Below are positions 21,807 through 26,515 of a stretch of DNA of 64,000 nt, piece after piece (position 1 is the first letter of the stretch; each line of letters starts with the position of its first letter). Source of the stretch: Gammaproteobacteria bacterium (lineage in GTDB: Bacteria; Pseudomonadota; Gammaproteobacteria; JAABTG01); the NCBI GenBank assembly GCA_034522055.1, contig JAXHLS010000002.1:2046001-2110000 (forward strand), written 5' to 3'. A program made the translations under genes and the position numbers. The notes below the pieces were generated by a model. The model made no database searches. It was not told the DNA's origin and saw only the letters and a program-made list of their open reading frames with translations.

Positions 21807-22928
21807 TCAGTACAGGAAGTCGCCGAGGCGCACGGGCAGGGACAGGGAGATGGAGAAATCGTCGGCGTCGTCGGTGAGGCCGATGCCGGCCGAGAGGTTC
21901 AGCAGGGTGCCCGGTGCCAGCAGAGTCGAGCCGCCCACCACGAAGGTGCCGAGGGTCCGGTCGCTGCCGGCCACCTCGTTGCCGGCGACCTTCGCTTCGT
22001 CCTGGTAGGCGACGGAGAGCTGCAGGCGCAGGGAGGTCTCGGGGCTGAGCGCGACGAAGCCGCCGAAGCTCGCGGACGTGGTGGCGCCGGGACGGATGCG
22101 ATCATCCTTCAAGACATGCTCGTAGGACAGCCCGCCGACGAAGGCGACGGGGTCCTGGCGCTTGATGGCCGACAGCGAGCCCCTGAGTTCGTGGAAGCCA
22201 CCGCCGAGGGACACGCCATCGTCGCTGCGCTCTCCGCTGTCGCTGTCCCAGGTGAGCCGCCCCACTAGGTCCGGGCGCCACAGGCCCTCGCGGAGCAGGG
22301 TCTTGGCGAGGCCGAGGCGCAGGTCGCCGAGGCCGGCGCCCGAGCGCTCCGGTGCCGCCGTGGGGGCAAAGCCGACGCGGGTTGTCGACTCCACCGCCCG
22401 CCAGCGGTAGGGCAGGCCCAGTTCCAGCTGCGCGTCCCAGGGCAGGCCCAGGCGTAGCGCCACGTCGGCCGTCAGGCTGTCGGCGTTGCGCTGCGTCTCG
22501 CCCGCCACGAGGCCGCCGCCGGAGGCGAGCAGGTGCGGCGTAGTGTCCTCGCGGCGCGCGTAGGTGAAGCCGGGCTCGATCTCCAGCGCGGCCTCGGGGA
22601 GCAGCAGCGCACCCTCCCGCGTAAGCGAGCGCTCGAGAGCCCGCTCCGCCGCGCTCTCCTCGACCACCACGGTTCCCGGCGCGTCCGCAGGGCCTGCGGC
22701 GGGTCGTTCCGGCGCCGCGGGATCGCGGGGTGGCGGATCGGCGGCGGCGTGCCGAACGCCCACCCGTCTCTCCAGGGCCTCCATTCGCTCCAGCAGCTCG
22801 AGGATCACCTTGTCCCGCTCCCTGAGCTTATGCTCCAGCTCCTGGACGCGGGTGTCCTGGGCAGCGGCGGTGAACGGTAGCAGCACCAGCAGCAGGGTCA
22901 GGGTAGGCCGCGAGTGGGTCCCGGTCAT
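21807..22928 (-). CDS. Outer-membrane channel with N-terminal coiled coil, FapF-like
   Basis: A 373-aa exported protein. After a signal peptide (ending near TAAAQ, residue 24), residues 26-57 form a heptad coiled coil (VQELEHKLRERDKVILELL, then ERMEALERRV). A Pro/Ala linker and a beta-rich C-terminal domain ending in LPVRLGDFLY follow; alternating strands and a terminal aromatic residue suggest an outer-membrane barrel of the phenol MetA-pathway type. FapF, the channel for Pseudomonas Fap amyloid, has this coiled-coil plus barrel layout. It lies 32 bp downstream of a C39 peptidase gene (FapD is also C39). The layout is seen; the FapF homology is inferred. Confidence 0.75.
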   Translation of the reverse strand: MTGTHSRPTLTLLLVLLPFTAAAQDTRVQELEHKLRERDKVILELLERMEALERRVGVRHAAADPPPRDPAAPERPAAGPADAPGTVVVEESAAERALERSLTREGALLLPEAALEIEPGFTYARREDTTPHLLASGGGLVAGETQRNADSLTADVALRLGLPWDAQLELGLPYRWRAVESTTRVGFAPTAAPERSGAGLGDLRLGLAKTLLREGLWRPDLVGRLTWDSDSGERSDDGVSLGGGFHELRGSLSAIKRQDPVAFVGGLSYEHVLKDDRIRPGATTSASFGGFVALSPETSLRLQLSVAYQDEAKVAGNEVAGSDRTLGTFVVGGSTLLAPGTLLNLSAGIGLTDDADDFSISLSLPVRLGDFLY

Positions 22929-22960
22929 GTTCTTTCGCCCTCCCGGGGTTGCGCTTCGTG

Positions 22961-23656
22961 TCACCTTAGGACAACGAAGTCTCGCGGCCACGCCGCCAGC
23001 CGCCCCGGCGGCGCCGGCATTTCCGCCTCGGTCACCAGGAAGCCCACGCGGCCGACGTCCTGGTACTCGATCCAGCCGTCCAGGAACTTGTCCACCGCCA
23101 TGGTGACGTTGCCGAAGGCCGGATCGGCGAGCAGCACCGTGTCCGCGGTGGCTCCGCGGAAGACCACGAAGTGGGGAAAGCCCTGCAGGTTCACCGGCAC
23201 GATGATGGGCGCGCGCTCGCGCAGGTCAGGCAGGGTCAGCCGCCCGAGACCGACGCCATCGTAGCCCATGCCGTCAACGTAGCGCTTGAGATCCAGCAGG
23301 GAGAAGCCCTGGCGCAGGCGTACCAGGTCGGGGTTGGCGAGGTACTCCTCGCGGTCGATGAGGCCCAGCGCCACCGAGCGTTCGGTGACCGGGACATTGT
23401 GCTGGTGGCGCAGCACGGTGGCCAGTGCGGCGGCGGCGCAGCTCAGCTCCCACTGCTGCAGGACGACGTGGTGCTGGCGTATCTCCACGAGCGACCGGAC
23501 GGGCGCCGGGGCTGCATCCGTGCCACTGCCGTCGCCCATGGCGGGGCCCGCGAGGGCCGCCAGGGCCGCGGCGACGCACCACCGGCGACGCGCGGCAGGC
23601 GCAGGGCCGCCGCCGCGCCGGCCGTCTTGCGGCGGCTCGCGGCGCGGCGGCGGCAT
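22961..23656 (-). CDS. Periplasmic C39-family cysteine peptidase, FapD-like
   Basis: A 231-aa protein with an N-terminal basic stretch and hydrophobic signal (RRRWCVAAALAALAGPAMG). The C39 residues are complete: Gln67/68 and Cys73 in QQWELSC, His162 in GFPHFVVF and Asp178 in LADPAFG. There is no ABC transporter fusion, unlike bacteriocin processing exporters. ATG 23656 is preferred over the TTG at 23713, because the region between carries a 28-nt palindrome better explained as intergenic. It lies between the small exported protein and the FapF-like channel, so cleavage of that protein after its Gly-Gly is the natural hypothesis. Confidence 0.8.
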   Translation of the reverse strand: MPPPRREPPQDGRRGGGPAPAARRRWCVAAALAALAGPAMGDGSGTDAAPAPVRSLVEIRQHHVVLQQWELSCAAAALATVLRHQHNVPVTERSVALGLIDREEYLANPDLVRLRQGFSLLDLKRYVDGMGYDGVGLGRLTLPDLRERAPIIVPVNLQGFPHFVVFRGATADTVLLADPAFGNVTMAVDKFLDGWIEYQDVGRVGFLVTEAEMPAPPGRLAAWPRDFVVLR

Positions 23657-23670
23657 GGGTGGGTCCGGGT

Positions 23671-23698
23671 CCGGGTCCCGGCCGCGGCCGGGACCCGG
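23671..23698 (-). promoter_or_regulatory. Perfect 28-nt palindrome between substrate and peptidase genes
   Basis: Arms of 13 bp (CCGGGTCCCGGCC) meet at a GC centre. It sits 15 bp after the substrate stop and 15 bp before the peptidase ATG. It has no T-tract. In an operon this placement often stabilises the upstream mRNA or partly blocks downstream transcription, so that the substrate is made in excess. Confidence 0.6.
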
Positions 23699-23713
23699 GG
23701 AAGGGGTGCTCAA

Positions 23714-24055
23714 CTACTGGCCCGCCCAGATGGCGGTGTAGTCGGTGTCCCCCGGCTCGGAATGGGGTCCGGGGGGCGTGCCGGCACCGTCGCCGTTGGT
23801 GGCGTGAACGGGCACCGTGACGTCGGGCCCGATGATGGTGTAGTGGCCCTCGCCGATCATCGCCCCTTTGGGGCTGTTGAGCACGCCGTCGGTGGTGATC
23901 ACCGGGCATACGAAGCCGTCCGTCGTCTCCACGCCGCCGGCCGCCACACCGTCCATCTGGGCGTTGCTCAGCGCTACTGGGGCGGCGTAGGCGCCGGTGG
24001 CCAGCAGGCCCGCCGCCACCGCGGCGGCACTCGTCTTCATCATCGTCTTGAGCAT
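23714..24055 (-). CDS. Small exported protein with signal peptide and double-glycine motif
   Basis: A 113-aa protein. Residues 1-24 are a Sec signal (MMKTSAAAVAAGLLATGAYA). Immediately after comes LSNAQMDGVAAGG, ending at Gly40-Gly41, which resembles the double-glycine leader cut by C39 peptidases. The predicted mature part, about 72 aa, has a single Cys50, a central SPKGAMIGEGHYTIIGPD segment and a Gly/Pro/Asp-rich tail ending in IWAGQ. A strong Shine-Dalgarno AAGGAGGT lies 7 nt before ATG 24055, suggesting high expression. It is first in an operon with the C39 peptidase and channel genes. I do not recognise the mature domain. Confidence 0.8.
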   Translation of the reverse strand: MLKTMMKTSAAAVAAGLLATGAYAAPVALSNAQMDGVAAGGVETTDGFVCPVITTDGVLNSPKGAMIGEGHYTIIGPDVTVPVHATNGDGAGTPPGPHSEPGDTDYTAIWAGQ

Positions 24056-24153: not shown

Positions 24154-24159
24154 CGTATA
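24154..24159 (-). promoter_or_regulatory. Candidate -10 element (TATACG) of the exported-protein operon
   Basis: On the minus strand TATACG lies 15 nt past the last GTGAT repeat, so an activator on the repeats would overlap the -35 region. Predicted transcription start is near 24147, giving a leader of about 90 nt. Confidence 0.45.
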
Positions 24160-24174
24160 GCTGGCCACACAAAC

Positions 24175-24212
24175 ATCACGTGCCGATCACGAAACCATCA
24201 CAGAAGTATCAC
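24175..24212 (-). promoter_or_regulatory. Four GTGAT direct repeats at exact 11-bp period (OmpR-family operator)
   Basis: On the plus strand ATCAC begins at 24175, 24186, 24197 and 24208. Read in the direction of the exported-protein operon this is GTGAT-N6 four times. Tandem half-sites one helical turn apart are typical of OmpR/PhoB-type regulators, and such a regulator gene lies divergently beside it. Confidence 0.75.
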
Positions 24213-24266
24213 GCCGCCCACCGGGCGCGGGAACGCCGTGCTCCCGCCACCTGCGCCTTTCCTGCC

Positions 24267-24282
24267 GTGACGATTCTGTGAT
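24267..24282 (+). promoter_or_regulatory. Two GTGAY repeats at 11-bp spacing before the regulator gene
   Basis: GTGAC at 24267 and GTGAT at 24278 face the regulator gene, whose ATG is at 24326. The half-site and spacing match the four-repeat array pointing the other way, which suggests autoregulation. Confidence 0.6.
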
Positions 24283-24325
24283 AATTCCATGCCTGAATGG
24301 GTCCCATTGGACCGGGGCAGGGTCT

Positions 24326-25033
<708 letters not shown>

Positions 25034-25036
25034 ACC

Positions 25037-26515
25037 ATGCCGGCCGTCCTGCACTCCCTGTCCGCCCGCCTCGCCCTGTTGCTGGCGGCAATGTTCGTGT
25101 TGGTGGGGATATTCTTCGTACTCGTCATGGCCTCCATGACGGACGGCTACCAGCAGGAGGTGGCCCAGAAGCTCAATCGGGACCTGGCCGAGCAGATGGT
25201 GGCGGAGCGCCTGCTGCTGCGCGACGGGCGAGTGGACCGGGAGGGGCTGGAGCACATCTTCCACATGCTCATGGTCATCAACCCCGCCATCGAGGTCTAC
25301 CTGCTGGACTCGGCCGGACACATCCTCGCCTTCTCCGCTCCGCCCGGAGAAGTGAAGCGCGAGGCGGTGGACCTCGCGCCGGTGCATGCGTTTCTGGGGG
25401 GCACGCGAAGCCTGCCCATCCGCGGTGACGACCCGCGCAGCCGCAGCGGGCGCAAGGTGTTTTCGGCCGCCCCGGTGGAGCAGGGGAGTGAGCTTCAAGG
25501 CTACCTGTACGTCGTCCTCGGTGGCCAGTCCTACGAGAACATTGTCGACATGCTGAGGGGCAGCTATGTGCTCAAGCTCGCCGCAGCGGTGGTGGTCGCG
25601 GGCCTGGTCTTCGCGCTGCTCCTGGCCATGCTGCTGTTCACCGTCCTCACCCGGCGCCTGCGCCTCCTTGCCCGTGCCATAGATGCCTTCCGCAAGACGG
25701 GGCTGGTTCCGGCCCTCGCCCCCGCAGCGCGGCATGGCGACGAGATCGACCAGCTGCGTGCGAGCTTCGAGGACATGGCGGCGCGCATCACCGGGCAGAT
25801 GGAGCGCCTCCAGGAGAACGACCGCCTGCGCCGCGCCATGGTGGCCAACGTGTCCCACGATCTGCGTACGCCGCTCGCCTCGCTGCAGAGCCACTTGGAG
25901 ACCCTGCGCATCAAGGAGTCCGAACTGGGGGGGGAGGAGAAGCGGCGCTACCTGGAGATCGCCCTACAGAACATCACCCGCCTCAACACCCTGGTGTACG
26001 AGTTGTTCGAACTGGCCAAGCTGGACGCCAATGAGGTCACGCCCGAATGCGAGCCCTTCGCGCTGCCCGAGCTGGTCCAGGATGTGGTCCAGAAGTTCGA
26101 GCTGCGCGCCGAGCAGGAGGGCATCGATCTGGTCCAGGACATTGCGAGCACCACCATCCCGTTCGTGGTGGCCGACATCGGGCTCATCGAGCGAGTGCTG
26201 GACAACCTCCTGGACAATGCCCTGCACCACACCCCGGCCGGCGGCCAGGTCACGGTGTCCCTCACCCCGGCCCGCGACCACGTGACCGTGCAGGTACGCG
26301 ATACGGGACAGGGTATCGCGGAACACGACCTGCCCTACGTCTTCGAGCGCTTCTATAAGGGCTCGCGCAACCCCCGCAGCCAGGGCGGTGCGGGGCTTGG
26401 GCTCGCCATCGTGCAGCGCATCCTCGCGCTGCACGGCAGCGTCATCCAGGCCACCAGCCAGAGCGACGCCGGCACGGCCTTCACCTTCGACCTGCCGTCC
26501 CGACGCCCGGTCTGA
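25037..26515 (+). CDS. Membrane sensor histidine kinase
   Basis: A 492-aa kinase: membrane helices at about 10-33 and 177-205 enclose a periplasmic sensor of about 140 residues; then a HAMP domain, HisKA with His274 in VANVSHDLRTPLAS, and HATPase with NLLDNALHHTPAGG, DTGQGI and GAGLGLAIV. The sensor domain is not one I recognise, though it lies next to envelope-export genes and may monitor the periplasm. Its stop is convergent with the Rieske gene. Confidence 0.96.
   Translation: MPAVLHSLSARLALLLAAMFVLVGIFFVLVMASMTDGYQQEVAQKLNRDLAEQMVAERLLLRDGRVDREGLEHIFHMLMVINPAIEVYLLDSAGHILAFSAPPGEVKREAVDLAPVHAFLGGTRSLPIRGDDPRSRSGRKVFSAAPVEQGSELQGYLYVVLGGQSYENIVDMLRGSYVLKLAAAVVVAGLVFALLLAMLLFTVLTRRLRLLARAIDAFRKTGLVPALAPAARHGDEIDQLRASFEDMAARITGQMERLQENDRLRRAMVANVSHDLRTPLASLQSHLETLRIKESELGGEEKRRYLEIALQNITRLNTLVYELFELAKLDANEVTPECEPFALPELVQDVVQKFELRAEQEGIDLVQDIASTTIPFVVADIGLIERVLDNLLDNALHHTPAGGQVTVSLTPARDHVTVQVRDTGQGIAEHDLPYVFERFYKGSRNPRSQGGAGLGLAIVQRILALHGSVIQATSQSDAGTAFTFDLPSRRPV

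What the first reader, a model, noticed from the sequence alone, without database searches (positions are those of the whole stretch)
24154..24282. Two opposed GTGAY operators with exact 11-bp period at the divergent promoter
Four GTGAT half-sites (24175-24212) read toward the exported-protein operon, and GTGAC-GTGAT (24267-24282) read toward the regulator gene, every step being 11 bp. This is the geometry of OmpR/PhoB family sites. The four-repeat array stops 15 nt from a TATACG -10, as expected for direct activation. So one regulator probably activates the secretion operon and controls itself.
Basis: partly seen in the sequence, partly recalled or inferred. Interest (0 to 1): 0.75.

Follow-up and report, generated by a model that had tools for sequence, protein, structure and literature searches.

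The report
Conserved operators of a two-component regulator
Six short repeats spaced exactly 11 bases apart mark where a sensor-controlled gene switch very probably binds to turn on its own gene and a neighbouring protein-secretion operon; the same repeats accompany related switches in dozens of other bacteria, so the prediction rests on comparison, not on one sequence alone.

Summary
GTGAY-N6-GTGAY occurs only at these places in the window. GTGAYNNTTYYGTGA occurs without mismatch in the whole 5.1 Mb genome only here.

Loci fetched by similarity of the regulator protein alone carry the same operator: 62 of 83 relatives sharing its recognition helix (GYEHTVN[S/T]HINRLR) have GTGA-N7-GTGA nearby, against 4 of 56 other OmpR-family regulators. 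The period is 11 bp only (47 sites; none at 10, one at 12). Regulator promoters have two half-sites; target promoters usually have three or four. Both read toward their gene, as in the window. At regulator promoters a TANNNT -10 usually starts 11 nt after the last GTGA, as in PhoB-type activation.

Elsewhere targets are mostly spondin_N exported proteins, methionine sulfoxide reductases, DUF1223 or thioredoxin-like proteins, Met-rich peptides, or DUF2282/MbnB-type genes. Here, and in one other genome, the divergent operon instead encodes a small exported protein with FapD-like and FapF-like secretion proteins. That other genome keeps only a degenerate regulator-side site. Binding, signal and direction of regulation are untested.

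The parts
24175..24212 (-). Four GTGAT half-sites at 11-bp steps (GTGATACTTCT GTGATGGTTTC GTGATCGGCAC GTGAT), predicted target operator reading toward the exported-protein operon; a weaker fifth unit (GTGG, 24168-24165) may follow
   Evidence: same 3-4-unit arrays at targets of regulator homologs
24267..24288 (+). Two half-sites GTGACGATTCT GTGATAATTCC, predicted autoregulatory operator
   Evidence: same two-unit site upstream of homologous regulator genes; scores 23 bits on a matrix trained without the window, best of 100 shuffles 14
24293..24298 (+). CTGAAT, weak -10 candidate of the regulator promoter at the family position (11 nt after last GTGA)
   Evidence: inference
24159..24164 (-). 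CCAGCT, -10 candidate of the exported-protein operon at the family position
   Evidence: inference, weak match to TATAAT
24154..24159 (-).
   Evidence: off the family position
24326..25033 (+). OmpR/PhoB-family response regulator (ATG at 24326), recognition helix GYEHTVNTHINRLRAKIE
   Evidence: Response_reg 7.5e-27 and Trans_reg_C 1.8e-30; no NCBIfam equivalog reaches its cut-off among those shown
25037..26515 (+). Sensor histidine kinase with conserved periplasmic motif GDDPR...KVFS...GYLY
   Evidence: motif conserved in clade
23714..24055 (-). Small exported protein (113 aa), signal peptide followed by LSNAQMDGVAAGG; strong Shine-Dalgarno AAGGAGGT
   Evidence: no Pfam family
22961..23713 (-). 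FapD/FilB-like C39 peptidase
   Evidence: Peptidase_C39 1.6e-10; NCBIfam C39_FapD 1.1e-26, below its cut-off
21807..22991 (-). FapF/FilC-like outer-membrane channel
   Evidence: NCBIfam FapF 7.8e-13, below its cut-off

Best explanation
The repeats are the binding sites of the response regulator encoded at 24326-25033. The sensor kinase (25037-26515) phosphorylates the regulator on a periplasmic cue. Regulator dimers then bind head-to-tail to GTGAYNNTTYY units: one dimer at the two-unit site in front of its own gene (positive autoregulation) and two dimers at the four-unit site in front of the divergent operon for the small exported protein, FapD-like peptidase and FapF-like channel. By analogy with PhoB the bound regulator takes the place of a -35 element and recruits sigma-70 polymerase. 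Shown here: the sites, their period, orientation and unit number, their association with a clade of regulators sharing one recognition helix, and the -10 position at homologous regulator promoters. Inferred: binding, activation, the cue, and the exact -10 elements in the window.
For: Sites exact and locus-specific. Homologs fetched by protein similarity carry the same operator: 62/83 with the recognition-helix signature against 4/56 without, Fisher p 3e-16; sites confined largely to one clade, SH-aLRT 97, that holds the window regulator. Background in unrelated regulator loci 0.026 per kb. Period 11 only: 47 exact sites against 0 at 10 and 1 at 12, and no CRP-type palindrome. Regulator promoters 2 units (35/37), targets mostly 3-4 when 3-of-4 matches are allowed (37/46), Mann-Whitney p 1e-9. 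Of the sites within 180 bp upstream of the regulator, 39 of 47 read toward it. TANNNT exactly 11 nt after the last GTGA in 23/37 regulator promoters, shuffles mean 0.9, maximum 5. PhoB boxes are direct repeats that substitute the -35 region (PMC4971064).
Against: The only other locus with the complete gene set (L031) lacks exact sites; its regulator-side site is degenerate (score 11.9, p about 0.03) and its exported-protein side scores nothing with this matrix. 21 of 83 clade members have no exact site in the scanned range. The window has no good -10 at the family position on either side. The clade and shuffle statistics do not correct fully for relatedness. No binding or expression data.
Confidence: 0.85

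Rival explanations
1. The regulator binds both sites but the four-unit array represses, or both activates and represses (for example phosphorylation-dependent switching), rather than simply activating the secretion operon.
For: The -10 candidate at the family position on the exported-protein side is poor (CCAGCT) and TATACG is about half a helical turn off.
Against: In the clade 14/24 target arrays of 3-4 units have NANNNT at the position 11 nt downstream, and arrays sit upstream of, not over, the -10.
Confidence: 0.12
2. The GTGA elements are CRP/FNR-type sites, since TGTGA is also the CRP half-site.
For: Shared TGTGA core (established knowledge).
Against: Units are head-to-tail at 11 bp; no TGTGAN6TCACA, exact or with one mismatch, within 200 bp upstream of any clade regulator or in the window region. 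Sites track one response-regulator clade.
Confidence: 0.02
3. The repeats are chance or a tandem duplication without regulatory role.
For: Loose pattern has 31 genome hits against 15 in the control; L031 does not keep it.
Against: Recurrence at the same places across many families; spacers differ between units, so it is not a recent duplication.
Confidence: 0.02

Closest known systems
PhoB and the pho box (OmpR/PhoB response regulators)
   Same: Winged-helix DNA-binding domain (1gxp matches at 1.4e-16); head-to-tail repeats at 11 bp; -10 close downstream, no -35 needed (PMC4971064).
   Different: Half-site TGTGA/CGTGA instead of TGTCA (latter from own knowledge); recognition helix EHTVN[ST]HIN instead of xRTVDVHIR; sensor and neighbours differ; no NCBIfam equivalog cut-off reached.
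Fap functional-amyloid operon of Pseudomonas (also Fil of Acinetobacter)
   Same: FapD-like C39 peptidase and FapF-like channel encoded together with an exported protein.
   Different: Scores far below the equivalog cut-offs (93.5 of 330; 48 of 700). No FapA/B/C/E recognised. A dedicated two-component system is attached, whereas the Pseudomonas fap operon encodes no regulator and its regulation is described as open (PMC6173800).
OrhK/OrhR of uropathogenic E. coli
   Same: Two-component system that directly activates an adjacent methionine sulfoxide reductase operon; proposed TGTGA half-sites (PMC8550376).
   Different: Reported site is an inverted repeat TCACA-N15-TGTGA, not tandem 11-bp units; relation to this clade not tested.

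Membership tests
OmpR/PhoB-family response regulator | Receiver domain plus Trans_reg_C winged helix | tested here: met
   PF00072 7.5e-27, PF00486 1.8e-30
OmpR/PhoB-family response regulator | Tandem direct-repeat operator with about 10-11 bp period | tested here: met
   (by sequence; binding not tested)
OmpR/PhoB-family response regulator | Phosphorylation-dependent DNA binding | not testable with these tools
   needs protein
PhoB itself | NCBIfam PhoB equivalog cut-off | tested here: not met
   212.6 bits of 296.2
Operator-defined regulator clade described here | Recognition helix GYEHTVN[ST]HINRLR | tested here: met
   window GYEHTVNTHINRLR
Operator-defined regulator clade described here | Sensor motif GDDPR..K.FS..GYLY in partner kinase | tested here: met
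   GDD/NDP-type motif in 68/77 clade kinases, 1/55 others; window has GDDPR, KVFS, GYLY
Fap functional-amyloid system | FapD and FapF equivalog cut-offs | tested here: not met
   distant homologs only
Fap functional-amyloid system | FapB/FapC repeat fibre subunits | tested here: not met
   No such family hit for the 113-aa exported protein; genes beyond the three-gene operon were not scanned
CRP/FNR site | Palindromic TGTGAN6TCACA | tested here: not met

The most novel reading that the evidence does not exclude
The sensor kinase, regulator and operator form a conserved cassette whose output gene is exchanged between lineages: spondin_N proteins, methionine-repair enzymes, Met-rich peptides, DUF2282/MbnB-type genes, and here a Fap-like secretion operon. 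If the cue is envelope oxidation or metal stress, this would make secretion of a Fap-like exported protein a stress output with a dedicated switch.
Probability: 0.35. Interest if true: 0.7.

Novelty: new member of a known kind. Interest (0 to 1): 0.52.

Why it matters
A single-locus guess becomes a testable regulatory code for a widespread clade of response regulators for which I found no description in the papers searched: helix signature, operator, unit number and -10 spacing all go together. It gives a candidate dedicated regulator for a Fap-like secretion operon, where regulation of Fap systems is called open in the 2018 review (PMC6173800). It also allows targets of orphan relatives to be predicted from DNA alone, among them spondin_N exported proteins of unknown function in bacteria.

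Tried and rejected
CRP/FNR palindrome: rejected. Other periods (10, 12): rejected. TATACG as the expected -10: not supported. FapD-like C39 clusters from the class search (L112-L140, L158-L162): no regulator beside them and only one isolated GTGA pair, in L130, so the operator belongs to the regulator and not to the secretion genes. Same-family genomes (4 others) lack the peptidase gene altogether. A spondin_N gene in the window's own genome was not found, but the search's controls did not ring either, so this is not evidence of absence. One-mismatch operators elsewhere in the genome are at about the control rate, 17 in all against 8, three of the 17 being the exact ones here. A phylum-wide search for the exported protein gave only one weak further hit without the neighbours. 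Literature searches for the regulator, its motif or a spondin link found nothing. The careful tree did not finish; the quick tree is used.

Full report
1. Observation. On the - strand GTGAT begins at 24212, 24201, 24190 and 24179; on the + strand GTGAC begins at 24267 and GTGAT at 24278. GTGAY-N6-GTGAY occurs four times in the window, all here, against 0.42 expected. In the whole genome this loose pattern is only about twice its control (31 against 15), but the fuller form GTGAYNNTTYYGTGA has three exact hits, all at this locus.

2. Surroundings. To the right lie an OmpR/PhoB-family response regulator (ATG at 24326) and a histidine kinase. To the left, divergent, lie a 113-aa exported protein, a C39 peptidase and an outer-membrane channel. 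The last two are distant relatives of FapD/FilB and FapF/FilC, well below the curated cut-offs. I therefore call them Fap-like, not Fap.

3. Independent test. Regulator homologs were collected by protein similarity, without reference to the DNA motif. The first twenty already showed GTGAT-N6-GTGAN in front of the regulator gene and again in front of a neighbouring exported-protein gene, against a background of 0.026 per kb at unrelated regulators. With 60 further loci the pattern held. Regulators with the recognition-helix signature GYEHTVN[ST]HINRLR have a site nearby in 62 of 83 cases; others in 4 of 56 (Fisher 3e-16). A few rows are near-identical genomes. On the quick tree the 83 form one group with SH-aLRT 97, and the window regulator lies inside it. 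The counts are clustered by descent, so the p-value is a guide only.

4. Syntax. Within 200 bp upstream of the regulators, direct GTGA pairs occur at 11 bp (47 exact), not at 10 (0) or 12 (1), and the CRP-type palindrome is absent. Regulator promoters have two units (35 of 37). Targets have three or four exact units in 22 of 46 and three or more in 37 of 46 if one mismatch per unit is allowed. The window shows exactly this: two units for the regulator, four for the operon, each reading toward its gene. At 23 of 37 regulator promoters TANNNT begins 11 nt after the last GTGA; shuffles give 0.9 on average and 5 at most. Several exceptions have a similar hexamer one base further. This is like PhoB, whose box substitutes the -35 region (PMC4971064). 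At the window the hexamers in this position are CTGAAT (regulator) and CCAGCT (operon); both are weak.

5. The one complete relative. L031 (Betaproteobacteria SG8_41, a metagenome-assembled genome) has the same exported protein (63% identical), C39 peptidase, channel, regulator and kinase in the same arrangement. Its regulator-side site is degenerate, CGCGATTCTTTCGTAATAACC (score 11.9, p about 0.03). Its other side has an 11-bp-periodic stretch of different letters, GTTGCGATTCTGTTGCGGGAGA, in the opposite reading direction, whose meaning I cannot decide. Its helix also differs from the consensus (HITRLR for HINRLR). This is the main weakness of the case for the secretion operon as a conserved target.

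6. Targets elsewhere. Genes behind the arrays are mostly spondin_N-type exported proteins (Spond_N 2.4e-8 for a representative). Others are MsrB (SelR), an MsrA-MsrB fusion, DUF1223, an AhpC/TSA-type thioredoxin-like protein, Met-rich small exported proteins, DUF2282 and MbnB/TglH/ChrH-type enzymes. The kinase sensor keeps GDDPR, KxFS and GYLY in the clade (motif in 68 of 77, 1 of 55 outside), the window included. The likeliest reading is one cue with exchanged outputs. The mix suggests oxidative or metal stress in the envelope; this is inference. OrhK/OrhR of uropathogenic E. coli, which activates a methionine sulfoxide reductase operon under H2O2 (PMC8550376), works alike, but I did not test whether it belongs here.

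7. Mechanism. Most likely the phosphorylated regulator binds its own two-unit site and the four-unit operon site and activates both. Binding and activation are not shown. The extra units at the target may make it respond at a different regulator level from the regulator gene; that is a guess.

8. Verdict. It is a new member of a known kind, with a well-defined operator code not found in the papers searched.

Noticed in passing
window 23714-24055 (-); L158, L159, L160: Exported proteins beside FapD-like C39 peptidases carry L[ST]xxxMDxVxAG directly after the signal peptide, resembling a double-glycine leader but in a Sec-exported protein; found in the window, L158/L112, L159/L113 and L160, and not once in 610 kb of unrelated loci. 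A possible periplasmic cleavage site for the peptidase.
   Followed up: partly
L034, L036, L037, L194, L210, L219, L223, L225, L238, L245 and others: Spondin_N exported proteins, often two in a row, are the commonest neighbours and predicted targets of this regulator clade.
   Followed up: partly
L193, L224, L033: DUF2282 and MbnB/TglH/ChrH-type (RiPP-modifying) genes stand behind operator arrays of the same regulator clade.
   Followed up: no
L052: A clade member with the same helix and sensor motif sits between a 23S rRNA methyltransferase-like gene and an arginine-transport-like operon in Klebsiella pneumoniae ATCC 13883, without a recognisable operator.
   Followed up: no
L031:1711-1765: 11-bp-periodic GTTGC repeats of unknown meaning upstream of the exported-protein gene, reading opposite to the window's array.
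   Followed up: partly
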